Source: Lachnospiraceae bacterium | GTDB lineage: Bacteria > Bacillota_A > Clostridia > Lachnospirales > Lachnospiraceae | Assembly (NCBI GenBank): GCA_900764695.1 | Contig: CAAFOY010000008.1 | Span: forward strand, 1 to 15,314 | Reading direction: 5' to 3' | DNA length: 15,314 nucleotides | Shown here: positions 5,020 to 13,647 of the stretch, piece after piece | Numbering within the stretch: position 1 is the first letter of the stretch | Layout: the number at the start of each line of letters is the position of its first letter | Notes under the pieces: model-generated | Databases searched by the model: none | What the model saw: the letters and a program-made list of their open reading frames with translations, nothing else | Told to the model about the DNA's origin: nothing | Position numbers and translations under genes: made by a program

Positions 5020-5604
5020 TTATTTATCCTTTTCTCCTTCAGGGAAAATAATTTTAAATACGAAGAAGAATATTACCATTGATACACCACCTGTAATAAA
5101 TGTTACAAGAATATTGTAAATTGCAGGTGATACATATGCTGATGCTATCGGCATCCATAAGTTATTAAATCCGTTACAGATTAATGAAATTACAACCCAT
5201 GCGATAAAATACCACATTGCCTGATACCATGGATTTCCTTTACTTTTAAAAGTAATGTTTCTCTGTAATGGGAAGTTAATACACTGTGCTAAAAATGAGC
5301 CTACCTCATAACTAATAAAGTATCCTAATCCACCACCGATTACTACTGCACCTGCTGCATTTTTTACAACATTGTATCCTAGTAAACTCCAAGTGAAATC
5401 CACACCGAATATATGCATGTCAATCTGTGGCCACATAAATTCTGTTCCTGCAAGTCCAACTCCTAACATCTTTGGCATAAATGTAAATATTAAATACTGA
5501 AATATTGTTACACCTTCGCTGAATACTATAAAGTAAAAAATCTGGTATAACCACTTTGCTAATTCAGGATGTTTTTCTTTAAAATTGCTCCAAATCTGTT
5601 TCAT
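5020..5604 (-). CDS. GtrA-like family small membrane protein
   Basis: 194 residues with four likely membrane helices (about 21-45, 78-108, 128-146 and 160-188) and a charged C-terminal tail. The segment NFPLQRNITFKSKG (110-123) matches the conserved loop of the GtrA-like family (Pfam PF04138), whose better-studied members are thought to move polyprenyl-linked sugars across the membrane. It is somewhat longer than the usual 120-150 residues, with an extra N-terminal stretch and a 45-75 loop. AAGGAG sits 6-7 nt before the ATG. It follows the GH3 gene by 95 bp with no terminator or recognisable promoter between, so the two look co-transcribed. A role in handling a glycosylated lipid or sugar linked to the GH3 activity is only a guess. 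Confidence 0.75.
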   Translation of the reverse strand: MKQIWSNFKEKHPELAKWLYQIFYFIVFSEGVTIFQYLIFTFMPKMLGVGLAGTEFMWPQIDMHIFGVDFTWSLLGYNVVKNAAGAVVIGGGLGYFISYEVGSFLAQCINFPLQRNITFKSKGNPWYQAMWYFIAWVVISLICNGFNNLWMPIASAYVSPAIYNILVTFITGGVSMVIFFFVFKIIFPEGEKDK

Positions 5605-5699: not shown

Positions 5700-8123
5700 T
5701 TATTTTTCTTCTAAAAGTCTTTTCTCGTATTCTTTATTTGCTTTGTTATTTGCAAAGAATCCTTTAATAACTTTTCCGACACCCTTAAAGAAATGCCCAT
5801 TCCAAATGCTTACAATTCCCTGTGCCATTTCTGTACTAACCATTCCACCTGTCATTTTTGCTAATGCATAAAAAGGCATATTGTAAATAAATAATATATT
5901 TAAATCCGGTTTTCCTTTTGCTTCGCTCTTCTTCTTTATGCTTGTTAAAATTTTATAAACTAATCGTCCTACCCATCTTTTAGCATAATATAACTGGCAA
6001 AATGCATCATACATTGATAGTTCACCTGACCAGCTTCCATCAGGGATTTTCCTTCCAAGCAAAGTTTCAAACTGCTTATCATCTACATTTTTGATATCTG
6101 CATTGTAATATGATGGCATTTTTTCTTTGTCATATGGATTTTCTGCCTCTGTTCCTTTTATAGAAATTTCTGCTGAAATTCTTACGTCTTCTACATTTGA
6201 AGCTATGTTAATAACATATTCTGCTGTTTCAATTTCAAACTTATTTGTTTTTACATTGAAATATCTAAATGTCTTATCATCAAATGGTATTTCAACCTGT
6301 TTGCTTTCGCCTGCCTTCAAAAATACTTTTTTGAATCCTTTTAATTCTTTTTCAGGTCTGTATATTTTATCTGACTTACAGCTTACATACATCTGGGCAA
6401 TTTCTTCGCCATCCATTTTTCCTGTATTTGTGATTGTAAATGTAACCTTGTCCTCTGCAACATTTATATCTGAATATTCAAATGTTGTATATGAAAGTCC
6501 ATATCCAAATGGATATTTTACAGGAACTTTAGCTGTGTCATAGTAACGATATCCTACAAATATTCCTTCTCTGTATTCTGATGTTCGTTCCTTTGATGGA
6601 AAATAATTGTATGAAGGTACATCTTCATATTTTACAGGTAATGTTTCGTTTAATTTCCCTGATGGATTTATCTTTCCTGTAATAATATCAAGTAATGCAC
6701 CTGCTCCTGCCTGTCCTGACAAATATCCATGCAAAAGTCCTTTGCAATTAACATCCCAAGGTGTTTCAATTGCTGAACCTGCACTTAATACTCCTACAAT
6801 GTTTTTATTTACCTTGCTTAATTCTTCAAGTAATTTAATCTGGTTTGCAGGAATTTTCATATGTTGTCTGTCTAATCCTTCTGACTCGCTTAATTCATCT
6901 AATCCAAAGAAATAGAGAACTACATCTGCTTTTGAAGCTATTTCTTTCGCTTCTTCAAGCAATTGATTATTTTCCTTACCTATTCTGTCATAACCTTTTG
7001 CTATTCCTATATTTTCAAGTTTATATTGTGCTATTGTATTTGCTATTGTTTCTATTTTTGTAGCATTTACAACTGATGAACCTGCTCCCTGAAATCTTGG
7101 TTCAATTGCAAAATCTCCTATAACTGCTACCTTTGTTCCTTCTTTTAATGGAAGAATATTTTCTTCGTTCTTGAGTAATACAGCACTCTTTCCTGCTACT
7201 TTTTTTGCTATCTCATGATGCAATTCTTTATCATACTTACTATTGCTTTTTTCTTTTTTTGCAAATGTTAAAATTGCATCCAACAATGTATCTACACACT
7301 CATCTAATTCTTTTTCAGTAAGTCTTTCTTCTTCAATTGATTTTAAAAGTTCTCTTGCTGAACCTAGTCCCGGTGCCGGCATCTCTAAATTAGAACCTGC
7401 TGCAACGCCTGCTGTATGGTCATTTGATGCTCCCCAGTCTGTAATAACTATTCCATCAAATCCCCATTCATCTCTTAAAATTTCCTGTAATAAATGCTTA
7501 TTCTCATTTGCATATACTTCATTTACCTGATTATATGCACTCATAATAGCTTTGGCATTTCCCTCTTTTACAGCAATTTCAAAATTTGTTAAATATATTT
7601 CTCTTAATGTTCTTTCATCTAATACAGAATCAGAAGCCATTCTTCTTAATTCCTGACTATTTACTGCATAATGTTTTGGGCATGCTGCAACACCTTTACT
7701 TTGAATTCCCTTAATATATGAAGCAGCCATTTTTCCTGCTAAATATGGGTCTTCTGAAAAATATTCAAAATTTCTTCCACATAAAGGATTTCTTTTTACA
7801 TTTAATCCCGGACCAAGTATTACATTTACATTTAAAGCTACTGCTTCCTCGCCTAAAGCTTTTCCTATTTCTTCGCCTAATTCCGGATCCCAGCTGTTTG
7901 CAACTGTTGCTGCTGTTGGGAAACATGTTGCTGGAACTGATGCATTTAATCCTAAATGATCGCCATCACCTTCCTGCTTACGAATCCCATGAGGTCCGTC
8001 AGAGCAAAACATTGACGGTATATTTAATCTGTCAATATTTCTTGTTTCCCACTCTGTCATTCCGCTTAATATTGCTGCTTTTTCGTCCAAAGTCATTTTA
8101 TTAAGTAAGTCCTGATGTTTCAT
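5700..8123 (-). CDS. GH3 beta-glycosidase (conventional domain order, cytoplasmic)
   Basis: 807 residues from the ATG at 8123. A TTG at 8147 is in frame but lies upstream of the strong AAGGAG (8130-8135), so the ATG is chosen. Order: GH3 TIM barrel (about 1-295) with SDGPHG at 41-46, GRNFEYFSEDP at 116-126, KHYAVN at 150-155 and the nucleophile D229 in VITDWGA; the GH3 C-terminal alpha/beta domain (about 305-500), where SEGLDR at 414-419 places the likely acid/base at E415; a fibronectin-III-like domain (about 515-650); and a further 150-residue tail with a hydrophobic patch at 741-765, as in many Firmicute GH3 enzymes. There is no signal peptide, so it probably cleaves imported oligoglycosides in the cytoplasm. 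Beta-glucosidase is the commonest activity, but xylosidase or others cannot be excluded. The gene heads an operon with the gtrA-like gene behind a tandem-box promoter. Confidence 0.95.
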   Translation of the reverse strand: MKHQDLLNKMTLDEKAAILSGMTEWETRNIDRLNIPSMFCSDGPHGIRKQEGDGDHLGLNASVPATCFPTAATVANSWDPELGEEIGKALGEEAVALNVNVILGPGLNVKRNPLCGRNFEYFSEDPYLAGKMAASYIKGIQSKGVAACPKHYAVNSQELRRMASDSVLDERTLREIYLTNFEIAVKEGNAKAIMSAYNQVNEVYANENKHLLQEILRDEWGFDGIVITDWGASNDHTAGVAAGSNLEMPAPGLGSARELLKSIEEERLTEKELDECVDTLLDAILTFAKKEKSNSKYDKELHHEIAKKVAGKSAVLLKNEENILPLKEGTKVAVIGDFAIEPRFQGAGSSVVNATKIETIANTIAQYKLENIGIAKGYDRIGKENNQLLEEAKEIASKADVVLYFFGLDELSESEGLDRQHMKIPANQIKLLEELSKVNKNIVGVLSAGSAIETPWDVNCKGLLHGYLSGQAGAGALLDIITGKINPSGKLNETLPVKYEDVPSYNYFPSKERTSEYREGIFVGYRYYDTAKVPVKYPFGYGLSYTTFEYSDINVAEDKVTFTITNTGKMDGEEIAQMYVSCKSDKIYRPEKELKGFKKVFLKAGESKQVEIPFDDKTFRYFNVKTNKFEIETAEYVINIASNVEDVRISAEISIKGTEAENPYDKEKMPSYYNADIKNVDDKQFETLLGRKIPDGSWSGELSMYDAFCQLYYAKRWVGRLVYKILTSIKKKSEAKGKPDLNILFIYNMPFYALAKMTGGMVSTEMAQGIVSIWNGHFFKGVGKVIKGFFANNKANKEYEKRLLEEK

Positions 8124-8206: not shown

Positions 8207-8272
8207 AATATATCATCTAAAATATCAAATATATTCTTTTGTCATAAACTGCCGTTTTAGAGACATAAACGG
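8207..8272 (-). promoter_or_regulatory. Tandem LytTR-type boxes and -10 of the cytoplasmic GH3 operon
   Basis: On the - strand CCGTTTATG (8272-8264) and CAGTTTATG (8251-8243) are direct repeats with a 21-bp period. Exactly 30 bp after the second box is TATATT (8212-8207), a 5/6 match to a -10. The hexamer 17 bp upstream of it (AATATA) is not a -35, as expected for an activator-dependent promoter. The same layout stands before the other GH3 gene at 11478-11543. Tandem GTT-containing repeats about two turns apart are the known target type of LytTR regulators, one of which is encoded at 12937-13647. The assignment is inference; the pattern is directly visible. Confidence 0.65.
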
Positions 8273-8363
8273 TGCTTTTATACGGGTATCTTTAAGGAAT
8301 GCTTTTACTGATTGTAAACATAGATACTATATTAAAATCAGGTGTATTTAGCGAATTGTGCAT

Positions 8364-8413
8364 AAAAAAGATGCATCCTTACTTAAGTTTTAATCACTTA
8401 AGTAAGGATGCAT
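8364..8413 (-). terminator. Strong intrinsic terminator after the anchored GH3 gene
   Basis: ATGCATCCTTACTTAAG (8371-8387) and CTTAAGTAAGGATGCAT (8397-8413) form a perfect 17-bp stem with a 9-nt loop. On the - strand the stem is followed by C and six T residues (8369-8364). It lies 84 bp past the GH3 stop at 8498. In the 374-bp gap 8124-8497 it separates that gene's 3' region from the tandem-box promoter at 8207-8272. Confidence 0.92.
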
Positions 8414-8433
8414 TTGAGGGAGTTTTCCGGTCG

Positions 8434-8455
8434 TCATGCCCTACAAATAGCATGA
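8434..8455 (-). other. Small hairpin in the 3' UTR of the anchored GH3 gene
   Basis: TCATGC (8434-8439) and GCATGA (8450-8455) are perfect 6-bp inverted complements with a 10-nt loop, between the stop codon and the terminator. There is no U-tract. The surrounding 8414-8445 is less AT-rich than its neighbourhood. No function assigned. Confidence 0.3.
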
Positions 8456-8497
8456 TTACCTTTAGTTATAATCTATAATTATTCTTAAACAACTATA

Positions 8498-11425
8498 TTA
8501 TTCTGCCTGTTCTACAACAACTTCTTTTCTTCTCTTGTTGAAGTTTACTATTAATAAGATTTCCCAGGCAATTAAGATAATTGCTGCGCAAACATCTACA
8601 ACTTTAAGAATTGTTTCCCAACGGTTTGGCTGCTGTGACTGTTCAATTCCAAGTTCACTGTACTGACGGCTATTTGCTACAACATAGAGAATACGCTTTG
8701 CTGACTGACGTAATTTCTGCTGTGCTCCTGCTGTTTCAGTATATTTCATATCATTTGCTTCTGTTGCATAGTTTACTAACATAAGGTCTGTACCGTTACG
8801 AATTGCCTGGTCAGCGTTCATGTAACCATATACACCAAAGTAGTCAGTTTCAACAAATCCCTTGAATCCCCATTCACCACGGAGAACATCTTCTAATAAT
8901 TCTGAGCATCCACCAGCCCAGCAGTTTCCAATGTAGTTGAATGATGACATAACTGCTAATGAGCCACCGTCTTTAACTGATTTTTCAAATGGCTTTAAGT
9001 AAACTTCACGGATTGCCTGTTCATTTGCCCATGTGCAAAGCATACTTGTTCTATTTGTTTCCTGATCATTTAATGCAAAGTGTTTCATATATGCATATAC
9101 TCCGTGAGCCTGTGCACCCTGAATTGCGCTTGTAGCGATATCTCCTGACAATACACCATCTTCTGAATAGTATTCAAAGTTACGTCCTGCAAATGCTGTA
9201 CGATGAATGTTCATAGCCGGGCCATACCAACCTGCTGTATCCATCTGATCTGCCATTGTTCCGATTGAATCACCAAATTTATTTGCTAATTCATTATTCC
9301 ATGTAGCTGCAATTACTACTGCTGCAGGGAATCCTACAGAACCCTGTCCTGTAAAGTTGTTATTAATAGAAGCCGGACCATCACAGTCATTTGTTCTATA
9401 TTTTCCTACTGATTTAATTGCTGCAGTCTGATATCCACCAAGAGATGTCATACTGTTCATTTCCTTAATTGTTAACTGATCCATAAATGTATCCCATTTT
9501 TCATCATCATAGTCTACACCACGCATGTCAACTAAATTAATTCCTGCATTCTTTCCTGTTGTTGGATATTCTGCATCAGGATCTTCATCTTTTTCACCTG
9601 CTTTTGCATCATAATTTGATACATTATAAAATCCTGCTTTAGCTTCATCTGACATCTCTGTACTTGTTGGAGCCTTTGTTGCTTCTTCATAGTTTGCAAA
9701 TTTATCTGCTCTTGAAAGGTATGTTACATCACCTTCTGCGAAATCAAATTCGTTTGTTGCAACTGATACATCACTTTCACGTTTGTTATCTTCGCCATAT
9801 GTAATTGTTTCAGGAACATTTACATTAACGCTGTCTAATACTGTATGTGAATCTGAATTTATAGATACCACATAGTCACCTTGTTCTAAAACATATGCTT
9901 TAGCTGTCTTTGAATCATAAGATGCCATATCTTCTTTATCAAATGAAACCTCAACTGTTTGAGTTGCACCCGGTTCAATTGAACCTGTCTTAGTATATGT
10001 AACTAAGTTTGCACTTGATTTTTCAATACCACCATTTGTATATGGAGGATTATAATATACTTCTACAACATCCTTACCAGCAACTGATCCTGTGTTCTTA
10101 ACTTCAACTGTCAATGTTACAGTATCACCTTCTGTGCTTGAATTTACAATTTTTTGTTCAAATGTGCTGTAGCTAAGTCCGTATCCAAATGGGTACTGAA
10201 CTGTCTTATCATAATCAATAAGACCTTCTGTAGCTGCTGTTTCATAGAACTTATATCCTACATAAATTCCTTCAACATAATTTACAAAAGTTGGCTGTGT
10301 TTCAGGACTGAAAGCTGTTGCATCAACCTTGAAATCACTCATATTTGTATATTCAAATTCTCCCATGTTATTCCATGTTGGAGCTTTTGTCAAATCATAT
10401 ACAAATGTATCAACTAATCTACCTGATGGGTTAACTTCACCTGATACGATACGTCCAAATCCGTCAAATCCTGACTGACCTGCACCTGCACACCAGTATG
10501 CACCCTTAATCTGTTTGTAATCATTAATAAATCCTAATTCAAATGGGTTTGCACCATTGTATACAACAATTACGTTGTCAAAGTTTTTACATACAAGATC
10601 AAGCATTTCTTCTTCTCTGTTTGATAACTGTAAGAAATGATCTCCTTTGTCCCAGTCTTTTCCTTCATTTACTGAATCGTCATATGTCATCGGAATATCT
10701 GCTTTGTATGTTCCGTCAGCAACTGCTGCCATATCTGTTGGAAGGTCAGCACCTTCACCACCTACACGTGAAATAACTACCATTGCTGTGTTTGAAAATT
10801 CTTTTGCATTGTTCATCATTTCATCTGTGTAAAGACTTACATTTGGCTCAGGTAATGTCCAATCACAACTCATCATTCCTACTTCAGGATGTTTATCTTC
10901 ATAATCTGTGTAAAATTTTGTTAATTCCTTGTTTGTTTCGATTCCTGCGTCATTTAAACCTTTGATTAAATTAACTGTAGGATATGCATCATTTAATGCA
11001 CCTGAACCTGTACCACCATAGCAAGGATTTGTTGAACCCCAGCCAAATACGTTTAACTTACCACTTGTTACAGGAAGAACGTTATCATCATTCTTTAAAA
11101 GAACTGCTCCTTCTTCCACAATTTCTGAAACTAAATCAGTAGCTTCTTCAGTTGTCTTTGCGTCGATTTTGCTAACCGGCTTTCCTGCTACTGATGTTAA
11201 CAATGTGTTCATTGGTCCTGTACAAATTAAATTTGCTAACACAACAATTACCAATACCATTGCTACCAAAACCTCTCCACGAACCAAACGCTTTAAAGGT
11301 TTCTTTAATCCTTTTACTGCTACGATAGCAATTATACCGACAATAATTGCTATTACACCTACTATTAAATGTGTTGAAATACTCTGAATAACTCCTATAA
11401 CGTCATCCCAGTTAATAGCTAACAT
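8498..11425 (-). CDS. Membrane-anchored GH3 beta-glycosidase with circularly permuted domains
   Basis: 975 residues. The order is reversed from ordinary GH3: two membrane helices (about 18-37 and 52-70); the GH3 C-terminal alpha/beta domain (about 95-345), with RVGGEGADLP at 220-229 placing the likely acid/base at E224; a fibronectin-III-like domain (about 380-540); a polar, acidic linker (about 540-635); the TIM barrel (about 640-915), with GRNFEYYSED at 747-756, KHFALND at 781-787 and the nucleophile D861 in ETDYFG; and a final membrane helix (about 941-961). This permuted order is known from R. albus and B. fibrisolvens beta-glucosidases. The basic loop 38-51 and basic tail NKRRK (963-967) put both ends inside and the catalytic part outside. 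AAGGAGG lies 7 nt before the ATG. It forms its own unit between terminators, behind a tandem-box promoter. The substrate is unknown. Confidence 0.95.
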   Translation of the reverse strand: MLAINWDDVIGVIQSISTHLIVGVIAIIVGIIAIVAVKGLKKPLKRLVRGEVLVAMVLVIVVLANLICTGPMNTLLTSVAGKPVSKIDAKTTEEATDLVSEIVEEGAVLLKNDDNVLPVTSGKLNVFGWGSTNPCYGGTGSGALNDAYPTVNLIKGLNDAGIETNKELTKFYTDYEDKHPEVGMMSCDWTLPEPNVSLYTDEMMNNAKEFSNTAMVVISRVGGEGADLPTDMAAVADGTYKADIPMTYDDSVNEGKDWDKGDHFLQLSNREEEMLDLVCKNFDNVIVVYNGANPFELGFINDYKQIKGAYWCAGAGQSGFDGFGRIVSGEVNPSGRLVDTFVYDLTKAPTWNNMGEFEYTNMSDFKVDATAFSPETQPTFVNYVEGIYVGYKFYETAATEGLIDYDKTVQYPFGYGLSYSTFEQKIVNSSTEGDTVTLTVEVKNTGSVAGKDVVEVYYNPPYTNGGIEKSSANLVTYTKTGSIEPGATQTVEVSFDKEDMASYDSKTAKAYVLEQGDYVVSINSDSHTVLDSVNVNVPETITYGEDNKRESDVSVATNEFDFAEGDVTYLSRADKFANYEEATKAPTSTEMSDEAKAGFYNVSNYDAKAGEKDEDPDAEYPTTGKNAGINLVDMRGVDYDDEKWDTFMDQLTIKEMNSMTSLGGYQTAAIKSVGKYRTNDCDGPASINNNFTGQGSVGFPAAVVIAATWNNELANKFGDSIGTMADQMDTAGWYGPAMNIHRTAFAGRNFEYYSEDGVLSGDIATSAIQGAQAHGVYAYMKHFALNDQETNRTSMLCTWANEQAIREVYLKPFEKSVKDGGSLAVMSSFNYIGNCWAGGCSELLEDVLRGEWGFKGFVETDYFGVYGYMNADQAIRNGTDLMLVNYATEANDMKYTETAGAQQKLRQSAKRILYVVANSRQYSELGIEQSQQPNRWETILKVVDVCAAIILIAWEILLIVNFNKRRKEVVVEQAE

Positions 11426-11477
11426 CTCATTTCCTCCTTTTTCATCTGAGCGATATCCGCTGTTTCCTTGTAACTAT

Positions 11478-11543
11478 AATTTACCACATCCTAATTTAAT
11501 TTGAGTTTTCTGTCATAAACTGTCGAAAATCACTCATCAACTG
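11478..11543 (-). promoter_or_regulatory. Tandem LytTR-type boxes and -10 of the anchored GH3 gene
   Basis: On the - strand CAGTTGATG (11543-11535) and CAGTTTATG (11522-11514) repeat with a 21-bp period. TAAATT (11483-11478) lies exactly 30 bp after the second box. The -35 position (ACTCAA) is poor. Spacing is identical to that at 8207-8272, and CAGTTTATGACA is shared letter for letter between the two proximal boxes. The site lies immediately after the kinase terminator. The -10 choice is the least certain part. Confidence 0.65.
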
Positions 11544-11566: not shown

Positions 11567-11595
11567 AAAAAAAGTGCACTTATATGTGCACTTTT
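11567..11595 (-). terminator. Terminator of the two-component operon
   Basis: AAAAGTGCAC (11570-11579) and GTGCACTTTT (11586-11595) form a perfect 10-bp stem with a 6-nt loop. On the - strand it is followed by an unbroken T-run (to 11567). It begins 17 bp after the kinase stop at 11612 and ends 24 bp before the first LytTR-type box of the next gene. Confidence 0.9.
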
Positions 11596-11611: not shown

Positions 11612-12937
11612 TTATTTGTTACTACAAGGAATTAATATTGTGAGTTCAAACCAATCTTTATTCATTCCTGCTTTCATGGTTCCGTCATATTTGTCAACTG
11701 TATATTGAATACTCTTAAGTCCGAATCCATGATTTCTTTTGTCAGCCTTTGAACTCTCAAATAATCTAATTCCTCTTTTATCCTCATTTGGTTTAACTTC
11801 GCAATAATTCTGAAATTGAATAAGTACAAATTTATTCTTTGCAGAAACAGTCACGTGTATAATTCTTTTTTCAATATCCTTAATCATTACTACATTTTCA
11901 ATTGCATTATCAATTGCATTTCCAAATATAGTACAAATATCAGTAACATGCATAAACTCAAGTAATTTTCCATCAATAACACAGGTAAACTTAATATCAT
12001 ATTTCTGTCCATGCATTATCTTTCCCGCTATAATAGTATCTAATACCTTATTTCCTGTATTAGTAACACTCTCAAATCCTCTAATATCATCTTCCATTGC
12101 ATCAAGCCACTCTGTTCTTTTATCGATATCCGTTTCTGCCCTAAGACCTGCAATCTGATGCTTTAAATCATGATATTTCATATTAATTAAATCTATGCTT
12201 TCCTGATAATTTCTATATTGATTGTACTGGCTCTTTAACATTGAATCCATTGTTACAATTTCTGACTCAGCCATAAGTTCACAAACTCTACTTTGATAAG
12301 CATAAAGAATTGTCATTCCTGCTAAATCAAATAATGTTCTAATGTTAAATATGTCACTTCTAAATCCACTTGAAAATGGAGTATTTTTCCAAATAAAACT
12401 TAAATTACTAAATGTAAATGCTACTGCCACTATAGCTATAACTGCAATAAATTCTTTATATGTAATTTTATTTAAATATTCAGGATTCATTAACGGCTTT
12501 TCCATAAATGCAACTAATACAAAAATTGCTGTATATATAACAACCAGCATTACTATCTTTGCAAATACAAAATGCTCAACATCAACTCTTGCATTCAGAT
12601 AACAATCCAACTGCCACTGAAATGATGCTGTAAACTCAGCAATAAGAAATGCTCTCGCACATAAATATGCCGCCGTAATTGAATGCACATTTCCTACCGT
12701 ATATATGAATAAATACATTAAAAGTGCCGCAGCCACCATACATGGAATCCACCATACTGTTGGCAAATCTCCCGTTGGAACTAACAACGCAATCTGTGCA
12801 ACTAAAAATAACGTTGATAATGCAACTGTTATTTTATTATTGAACCTCTTCTTAATAAGGCAAATATAAATTACACACGCTCCCCATTCTGCTAATGCCG
12901 TATAAAATCTTGGAATATCCTGATAAATTGTTTCCAT
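11612..12937 (-). CDS. AgrC-like sensor histidine kinase (GHKL, HPK10-type)
   Basis: 441 residues. The N-terminal 215 residues hold six or seven membrane helices, an integral-membrane sensor with no extracellular PAS or Cache domain. A linker helix (about 220-250) leads to the phosphoacceptor motif KYHDLKHQI at 254-262, with H256 the likely phosphorylated residue. The ATP-binding domain (about 295-440) has the N-box FGNAIDNAIE at 338-347 and the G-box HGFGLKSI at 403-410. This is the kinase class that partners LytTR regulators (AgrC, PlnB, ComD). Its ATG shares one base with the regulator's stop (TAATG), so the two are translationally coupled and almost certainly cognate. AgrC relatives usually sense peptides, but no peptide or AgrB-like processing gene is in the window, so the ligand is unknown. 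Confidence 0.9.
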   Translation of the reverse strand: METIYQDIPRFYTALAEWGACVIYICLIKKRFNNKITVALSTLFLVAQIALLVPTGDLPTVWWIPCMVAAALLMYLFIYTVGNVHSITAAYLCARAFLIAEFTASFQWQLDCYLNARVDVEHFVFAKIVMLVVIYTAIFVLVAFMEKPLMNPEYLNKITYKEFIAVIAIVAVAFTFSNLSFIWKNTPFSSGFRSDIFNIRTLFDLAGMTILYAYQSRVCELMAESEIVTMDSMLKSQYNQYRNYQESIDLINMKYHDLKHQIAGLRAETDIDKRTEWLDAMEDDIRGFESVTNTGNKVLDTIIAGKIMHGQKYDIKFTCVIDGKLLEFMHVTDICTIFGNAIDNAIENVVMIKDIEKRIIHVTVSAKNKFVLIQFQNYCEVKPNEDKRGIRLFESSKADKRNHGFGLKSIQYTVDKYDGTMKAGMNKDWFELTILIPCSNK

Positions 12938-13647
12938 TATTCAGTCACCCCACTCATATAATTAACTAAAGCCTCCATAAACGGCTTTTTCTTTGCTCTA
13001 CTTATTAATAACTCCTCGTCATTAATAAGGCACACTCCCTCTTTTACCCCATCGACGTATTTGAGATTAACAATATATCCTTTATTGCATCTGAAAAATC
13101 CATATGGCGATAATATTTCCTCCATATCTTTCATTGTACCTCTTGCAGTAAATTCGCCTTTCTTAGTTCTATATATGAGAGAATGTCCCATACTTTCAAC
13201 ATAATATATATCATCAATTTCCATTTTTAAAACACCATCTTCTACAGGAATTGATACAAATACTTTCTTTTTATTTTGTAGTCTTCCTATCGCTCTATCA
13301 AGTTTCTGCGAAAACGGAAAATATTCAACCGGTTTTACAACGTAATCTAATGCATCAACTTCATATCCTCTTATTGCATATTGGGTCATATTTGTAATAA
13401 ACATTATAATTACCTCGCTGTCTAATTTTCTAATCTGTTCAGCAGCCGTCATTCCATCCATATATTTCATCTGAATATCCATAAGAATTATGTCAAAATC
13501 TCCTGAATAATTTTCAACTATTTCCGCTCCATCCGGAAATACTCTTACATTAATTCTGTTTCCGCTTTCCTTCTCATATCTTGATATATATTCTTTTAAT
13601 TGAGATACGTATAATTTCTCATCCTCAACTATTGCAATATTAATCAT
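12937..13647 (-). CDS. LytTR-family response regulator (AgrA/LytR type)
   Basis: 236 residues. The receiver domain (about 1-122) has the acidic pair E8-D9, the phosphoacceptor D57 (ILMDIQM), T85 in FITN and K105 in VVKPV. The C-terminal LytTR DNA-binding domain (about 130-232) includes DDIYYVESMGHSLIYRT (145-161) and FFRCNKGYIVNLKYVDGV (184-201), typical of the fold that binds tandem repeats with its beta-sheet loops. AGGAGG lies 6 nt before the ATG. It is the first gene of the operon, one base overlapping the kinase. Its likely targets are the tandem boxes in front of the two GH3 genes. No such pair stands before its own gene, so autoregulation is not evident. Confidence 0.93.
   Translation of the reverse strand: MINIAIVEDEKLYVSQLKEYISRYEKESGNRINVRVFPDGAEIVENYSGDFDIILMDIQMKYMDGMTAAEQIRKLDSEVIIMFITNMTQYAIRGYEVDALDYVVKPVEYFPFSQKLDRAIGRLQNKKKVFVSIPVEDGVLKMEIDDIYYVESMGHSLIYRTKKGEFTARGTMKDMEEILSPYGFFRCNKGYIVNLKYVDGVKEGVCLINDEELLISRAKKKPFMEALVNYMSGVTE

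What the first reader, a model, noticed from the sequence alone, without database searches (positions are those of the whole stretch)
8207..11543. Identical tandem-box promoters before both GH3 genes point to a local LytTR regulon
On the - strand, C(A/C)GTT(T/G)ATG occurs twice with a 21-bp period before each GH3 gene (8243/8264 and 11514/11535). In both cases exactly 30 bp separates the proximal box from a TA(T/A)ATT hexamer (8207-8212, 11478-11483), with no usable -35. The proximal boxes share CAGTTTATGACA. I did not find the pair before the ADH, GtrA-like, RR or yibE-like genes. LytTR regulators are known to bind tandem GTT-containing 9-mers about two turns apart, and a LytTR RR/AgrC-like kinase pair is encoded just upstream. 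AgrC/AgrA-type systems are best known for quorum sensing and bacteriocins, so control of glycoside hydrolases would be an uncommon use.
Basis: partly seen in the sequence, partly recalled or inferred. Interest (0 to 1): 0.78.

Follow-up and report, generated by a model that had tools for sequence, protein, structure and literature searches.

The report
LytTR operator pairs controlling GH3 glucosidases
Two sugar-cleaving enzyme genes in this gut-type bacterium each start with the same two-box DNA switch, which recurs before related enzymes next to the same kind of signalling proteins in many bacteria, so a nearby sensor most likely turns these enzymes on together.

Summary
A matrix built only from 21 relatives' sites ranks exactly these two sites first in the window (26.1, 21.8 bits; next 11.0). 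A GH3 relative lies in the fetched stretch around the RR in 41 of 51 loci. Left-group-out models rank the operator before the GH3-containing unit first in 20 of 21 loci. In 299 genomes of one family, 18 of 34 strong sites lie within 13 kb of an RR relative, 15 of 30 outside two training genomes. A Roseburia inulinivorans GH3a on another contig carries the boxes too. Predicted terminators separate the GH3 genes, explaining two operators. Best explanation: the adjacent LytTR regulator activates both promoters. The LytTR-GH3 linkage was printed in 2010 (PMC2914790); searches listed no paper on the operator. Binding is untested. In ten genomes no AgrB lies on the RR contig, so this is not classic Agr quorum sensing. 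The same box grammar also precedes unrelated genes.

The parts
12937..13647 (-). LytTR response regulator (receiver + LytTR), the presumed activator
   Evidence: Pfam Response_reg and LytTR; D57 invariant in the 22 aligned sequences, this one included; LytTR motif FFRCNKG
11612..12937 (-). GHKL sensor kinase with multi-TM N-terminal part and an HDLKHQ motif (taken as the phospho-acceptor histidine, recalled)
   Evidence: HATPase_c_5; motif and 4-5 hydrophobic segments by hydropathy
11570..11595 (-). predicted terminator hairpin between kinase and GH3b (one search lists it on +; on - its 3' arm runs into seven T)
   Evidence: -14.5 kcal/mol, z -2.7
11535..11543 (-). distal LytTR box of the GH3b promoter (CAGTTGATG)
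11514..11522 (-). proximal LytTR box of the GH3b promoter (CAGTTTATG, followed by ACA)
11478..11486 (-). extended -10 of GH3b (TGG-TAAATT), 30 bp from the proximal box
8498..11425 (-). GH3b: membrane-anchored GH3, permuted order (GH3_C, Fn3, GH3_N), two N-terminal and one C-terminal hydrophobic segments
8371..8413 (-). strong predicted terminator between GH3b and GH3a
   Evidence: -27.2 kcal/mol, z -9.1
8264..8272 (-). distal LytTR box of the GH3a promoter (CCGTTTATG)
8243..8251 (-). proximal LytTR box of the GH3a promoter (CAGTTTATG, followed by ACA)
8207..8215 (-). extended -10 of GH3a (TGA-TATATT), 30 bp from the proximal box
5700..8123 (-). GH3a: normal-order GH3 without a hydrophobic segment (start taken as ATG 8123)
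5020..5604 (-). GtrA-like membrane protein (Pfam match below the cut-off), frequent partner of the module in relatives; no own box here

Best explanation
The two box pairs are operators of the LytTR response regulator encoded at 12937-13647. The GHKL kinase encoded beside it senses an unknown signal and phosphorylates the regulator. A regulator dimer binds the two direct repeats about two helical turns apart on one DNA face, centred near -57, and recruits RNA polymerase to an extended -10 promoter that lacks a -35, switching on GH3b (extracytoplasmic, membrane-anchored) and GH3a (cytoplasmic). Shown here: sequence, spacing, conservation, linkage, and predicted terminators that part the two genes. 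Inferred: binding, phosphorylation, activation rather than repression, protein locations, and that there is a signal.
For: Exact boxes. A model from relatives alone ranks the two window sites first. Leave-group-out rank 1 in 20 of 21 loci; in the other (L002) rank 1 is a second operator, before its own GH3b. TGnTAnnnT at 29-32 bp from the proximal box in 26 of 28 sites, which were chosen by boxes alone. A GH3 relative in the fetched stretch of 41 of 51 RR loci. Box presence and RR presence co-occur in 299 genomes: 16 of 27 box genomes have an RR relative versus 37 of 299 overall, Fisher p 6e-10; 14 of 25 without two training genomes, p 1e-8. The unlinked GH3a of R. inulinivorans has the boxes, 26.7 bits (R1 E 0.001). 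Actinomycete loci have 21-bp pairs as their best site: Cellulomonas timonensis L029 (10.2 bits, about 210 bp before GH3b) and Schaalia L030 (25.2 bits, about 840 bp before GH3b with a small ORF between). Geometry fits published LytTR promoters (passages).
Against: The sites used to build the matrix were chosen with a seed resembling the window box, so within-region choice is partly circular; the ranking against the rest of each locus is not. At least one of 100 Markov windows reached beyond the GH3b site's 21.8 bits (maximum 22.7). The same grammar precedes unrelated genes: 16 of 34 strong hits are not near an RR relative, so another LytTR protein could bind. Among further LytTR-linked GH3 genes only 6 of 16 show a pair of 12 bits or more, and three of those six are orthologues. 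Only 15 of 74 RR relatives, though 9 of the closest 12, have a strong site within 13 kb; of 12 further regions fetched around RR relatives without one, 2 (L178, L179) reach 17 bits. The window's own genome was not available. No binding or expression data.
Confidence: 0.86

Rival explanations
1. The boxes are LytTR operators, but of a different LytTR regulator elsewhere in the genome (cross-regulation or a global LytTR factor).
For: Ten related genomes have 5 to 31 LytTR domain matches each, and very similar operators precede unrelated genes away from RR relatives.
Against: In ten genomes the strongest site lies beside this RR and few others come near it (nine of the ten sites trained the model); outside two training genomes 15 of 30 strong sites adjoin RR relatives; RR and boxes keep company across genera.
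Confidence: 0.1
2. An Agr-like quorum-sensing circuit: the kinase senses a cyclic peptide and the GH3 genes are density-controlled.
For: GHKL kinase and LytTR regulator are the protein families of Agr; operator geometry resembles AgrA sites.
Against: No AgrB match on the contig of the RR locus in any of 10 genomes, 4 of which have no AgrB match at all; the RR scores 34 bits against a cut-off of 400 for AgrA. AgrD peptides were not searched.
Confidence: 0.05
3. The shared boxes reflect recent duplication of promoter DNA or chance and carry no regulation.
For: Two promoters in one locus; 9-mers are short.
Against: Only the boxes, their period and the extended -10 look alike; the sequence between and around them differs (by eye). 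The same layout recurs in relatives with diverged flanks.
Confidence: 0.02

Closest known systems
AgrA (S. aureus) tandem direct-repeat promoters P2/P3
   Same: LytTR response regulator with a GHKL-type kinase (kinase type recalled); two direct repeats upstream of a weak promoter, proximal repeats centred about -60 (passages of PMC4227749); here the pair centre is about -57 if the TA is at -12 (my arithmetic)
   Different: Here no AgrB on the RR contig; targets are GH3 enzymes; extended -10 without a -35 instead of long-spacer promoters; DNA-contact motif FFRCNKG instead of FFRCHNS
LytTR Regulatory Systems (HdrRM, BrsRM; PMC6193735)
   Same: Direct repeats mostly 12 bp, sometimes 11 or 13 bp, apart, upstream of promoters; an extended -10 at hdrRM (passages read)
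   Different: LRS regulators work with an inhibitory membrane protein and activate their own operon (passages); here a receiver domain and a kinase, and no operator before the RR in the window
LytTR-GH3 pairs of Butyrivibrio proteoclasticus B316 (PMC2914790)
   Same: Authors note three LytTR regulators, each close to a secreted GH3 with a C-terminal TM helix (passage read)
   Different: The words promoter, binding site and operator do not occur in the text; here the operator, its spacing and its reach are given
Roseburia gpPUL Ros-7 with RR[LytTR] (PMC5320581)
   Same: LytTR regulator plus kinase beside glycoside hydrolases (table passage read)
   Different: GH25, GH43 and GH51 with transporters, predicted arabinoxylan locus; no GH3 listed in that row

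Membership tests
LytTR-type direct-repeat operator | Two 9-bp direct repeats with GTT core, 11-13 bp apart | tested here: met
   12 bp between the 9-mers in both window sites; 20- or 21-bp period, i.e. 11 or 12 bp between, in relatives, where the GTT core itself varies
LytTR-type direct-repeat operator | Placed just upstream of the promoter of a gene linked to a LytTR regulator | tested here: met
LytTR-type direct-repeat operator | Bound by a LytTR domain | not testable with these tools
   needs EMSA or footprint
Agr quorum-sensing system | LytTR regulator and GHKL kinase | tested here: met
Agr quorum-sensing system | AgrB peptidase at the locus | tested here: not met
   AgrB (PF04647) absent from the RR contig in 10 of 10 genomes; none among the 10 window proteins scanned
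Agr quorum-sensing system | AgrD signal peptide gene | not tested
   no search for AgrD was made
LytTR Regulatory System (LRS) | LytTR regulator paired with an inhibitory membrane protein (no receiver or kinase, recalled), self-activating operon | tested here: not met
   receiver domain and kinase present; no pair before the RR in the window
Gram-positive polysaccharide utilisation locus | Glycoside hydrolases with a sugar transporter and regulator | tested here: inconclusive
   no sugar transporter family among the 10 window proteins scanned, but the window covers only 15 kb

The most novel reading that the evidence does not exclude
LytTR regulator, GHKL kinase and a membrane-anchored permuted GH3 form a dedicated, paralogously expanded glycoside-sensing system found in Bacillota and Actinomycetota, in which the surface GH3 releases the ligand that its partner kinase senses, and each paralogue keeps its own operator variant so that several such systems run side by side in one cell.
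Probability: 0.25. Interest if true: 0.72.

Novelty: new member of a known kind. Interest (0 to 1): 0.52.

Why it matters
LytTR regulators are known mostly from quorum sensing, bacteriocin and virulence control (recalled), while regulators in the polysaccharide utilisation loci of the Roseburia/E. rectale group were reported to be mainly LacI and AraC types (passage of PMC5320581). A defined operator at a fixed distance from an extended -10 makes this LytTR regulon predictable from sequence and the regulator-target link directly testable, in cultured species such as Roseburia inulinivorans and Butyrivibrio proteoclasticus.

Tried and rejected
Scan of the window's own genome: none is held. Rfam: 0 matches over gathering scores, so no known RNA family is recognised there. 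Box as a disguised -35 (ATGACA, 17 bp, TAGGAT): rejected because TGnTAnnnT lies at 29-32 bp in 26 of 28 sites. First narrow regex over relatives found no pair at the RR-GH3 loci (one match elsewhere, in L037) and seemed to speak against conservation; the general LytTR consensus, written from memory, found strong pairs in L010, L011, L013 and L047 and some weaker matches, and reading 29 intervals of 22 loci showed diverged pairs in the rest. L020, one of the 22, was left out of the matrix; its best site (12.7 bits) lies between kinase and GH3b. Autoregulation of the RR: no site in the window; sites just before the RR were seen in L043 and G055, but this was not examined systematically. Further LytTR-linked GH3 modules: no pair in several (L111, L124, L131, L136, L146, L152, L159, L173), so the operator does not extend recognisably to all paralogues. 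A G001 C44 GH3 with a 20.6-bit pair but no LytTR match on its 24.8-kb contig is unexplained. An R1 hit before a GH3 of G009 C28 (E 0.011) was not confirmed by the matrix.
Full report
What is there. On the minus strand lie, in order of transcription, a LytTR response regulator (12937-13647), a GHKL kinase (11612-12937), GH3b (8498-11425), GH3a (5700-8123) and a GtrA-like gene. GH3b has the permuted order GH3_C, Fn3, GH3_N and hydrophobic segments at both ends; GH3a has normal order and none. Predicted terminator hairpins follow the kinase and GH3b, so each GH3 gene most likely needs a promoter of its own.

The boxes. In both, TGnTAnnnT follows 30 bp after the proximal box. There is no usable -35.

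Conservation. A genome-contig search with the RR gave 51 loci; in 41 of 51 the fetched stretch carries a GH3 relative, among them Cellulomonas timonensis and Schaalia vaccimaxillae. Of the ten without, six end within about 1 kb of the RR or kinase (L019, L026, L037, L039-L041), three match the RR only in part (L049-L051), and L003 runs 3.5 kb past the kinase without one. I read 29 intervals in 22 loci. In 21 of them (L020 left out as weaker) a tandem element of about [AG]C[AC]nTTyRTGmCA repeats with a period of 20 or 21 bp before the unit that holds the GH3 genes; in L015 and L047 a GtrA-like gene comes first in that unit. The sites were picked inside those regions with a seed like the window's box, so I tested them against the rest of each locus: with the locus and its close kin left out of the matrix, the site ranks first in 20 of 21 loci; in L002 it ranks second behind another operator, before that locus's own GH3b. 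The matrix without any window sequence puts the window's two sites first at 26.1 and 21.8 bits; the third is 11.0. In 100 Markov windows the best score averaged 13.0 with a maximum of 22.7, so the GH3b site alone is not quite beyond chance by score; its position is what tells. TGnTAnnnT lies at 29-32 bp in 26 of 28 sites checked; the misses are L014 (TATAAT at 31, TG shifted by one) and L045.

Actinomycetes. In L029 the best pair of the locus (10.2 bits, period 21) lies about 210 bp before its GH3b; in L030 a 25.2-bit pair lies about 840 bp before GH3b with a small ORF between.

Genome scale. A sequence-only model R1 from 24 sites (2 from the window) was run on ten genomes: the RR-locus site is the best hit in all ten, as expected, since nine of those sites trained the model and the tenth (L013) is a near copy; what is informative is how little else comes close. 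Extras are L002's GH3b (also a training site) and, in R. inulinivorans, the GtrA-like gene (E 5e-5, not in training) and weaker hits before a gene that looks like a GPH-type transporter (L072, E 6e-4, by eye) and before a GH3 on contig C10 (E 0.001). That C10 gene is a GH3a relative (58% over 792 residues); its contig has no LytTR match, yet its upstream pair scores 26.7 bits. A separate draw of 299 genomes of that family gave 34 strong hits in 27 genomes. Of these hits 18 lie within 13 kb of an RR relative; leaving out the two training genomes G009 and G046 it is 15 of 30 (my recount of the lists). By genome, 16 of 27 with boxes have an RR relative against 37 of 299 overall, Fisher p 6e-10; without the two training genomes 14 of 25, p 1e-8. 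The closest RR relatives do best: 9 of the top 12, 13 of the top 24, 15 of all 74 have a strong site within 13 kb. I fetched 12 regions around RR relatives without such a hit: two (L178, L179) show a pair of 17 bits or more; two pieces (L180, L186) end just after the kinase, and in L187 GH3a starts only some 40 bp after it. A looser R1 run put weak hits beside the RR of G052, G208, G055 and G120. So conservation is strong near this RR and fades with distance.

Linkage. In the ten genomes, 25 of 30 GH3 genes with frames of 940 residues or more lie within 12 kb of a LytTR gene (2.3 expected by density) against 10 of 55 shorter ones (4.6 expected) (of the 86 GH3 matches one, a second piece of the same gene, was dropped). 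The genomes were chosen for one such locus each; 11 of the 25 lie at those loci, leaving 14 of 19 elsewhere, some of them orthologues among three Butyrivibrio genomes. Upstream scans took 62 of the 85 genes: 19 at the chosen loci were not fetched and 4 were dropped because no upstream stop was in the piece. Of these 62, 6 of 16 LytTR-linked and 2 of 46 unlinked genes have a pair of 12 bits or more (2.1% of random pieces do). Three of the six are orthologues and one lies in the L015 locus; one of the two unlinked is the R. inulinivorans GH3a.

Not specific to GH3. Of the 16 strong hits away from RR relatives I looked at 15: several precede genes that look like ABC exporters or secreted proteins, while four lie inside a predicted ORF on one strand and may be chance. 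L091, which is beside an RR relative and kinase, precedes a gene that looks like GH43. These names are by eye. The operator is thus a general LytTR grammar, here used for GH3.

Mechanism. Published LytTR promoters have direct repeats mostly 12, sometimes 11 or 13, bp apart upstream of the promoter, with an extended -10 at hdrRM (passages of PMC6193735), and AgrA sites centre near -60 (passages of PMC4227749). Taking the hexamer at -12, this pair centres near -57. The absent -35 argues for activation; that is inference. The recognition motif FFRCNKG differs from AgrA's FFRCHNS. The signal is unknown; AgrB is not on the RR contig in any of ten genomes, and AgrD was not searched.

Prior art. Kelly et al. 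2010 on B. proteoclasticus (authors recalled) state that three LytTR regulators each lie close to a secreted GH3 with a C-terminal TM helix (passage of PMC2914790); the words promoter, binding site and operator do not occur in that text. Searches for LytTR with GH3 or beta-glucosidase terms, Roseburia, PUL, Butyrivibrio and binding-motif terms listed no other paper whose title or abstract start points to this operator. I saw listings and, for five papers, passages (PMC5320581, PMC6222199, PMC6193735, PMC2914790, PMC4227749); most subscription journals are not in that library.

Noticed in passing
8498-11425: GH3b has a permuted domain order (GH3_C and Fn3 before GH3_N) and hydrophobic segments at both ends; eight relatives checked have segments at the same places.
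   Followed up: partly
5020-5604: A GtrA-like membrane protein accompanies the module in relatives (L007, L009-L011, L013, L014, L016, L023, L030, L047) and has its own operator in Roseburia inulinivorans (L063). Its role beside two GH3 enzymes is unexplained.
   Followed up: partly
L164 (G009 C10:131500-136500): Roseburia inulinivorans GH3a sits on another contig than its presumed regulator but has a 26.7-bit operator and, by eye, a TGnTAnnnT 31 bp further on.
   Followed up: yes
L083, L085, L100, L103, L108, L109: The same operator-plus-extended -10 layout precedes genes that look like ABC exporters or secreted or membrane proteins, so R1 may serve as a general LytTR promoter model.
   Followed up: partly
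L091 (G159 C2:566432-569493): An RR relative and kinase are followed by an operator and a gene resembling GH43 (by eye), hinting at LytTR control of other glycoside hydrolase families.
   Followed up: no
relatives in alignment A1: The repeat period is 20 bp in most relatives but 21 bp in the window, Butyrivibrio (L010, L011, L013), L015, L018, L026, L027 and L047; what sets it was not worked out.
   Followed up: no
217-2120: Two adjacent YibE/F-family genes of different length on the + strand.
   Followed up: no
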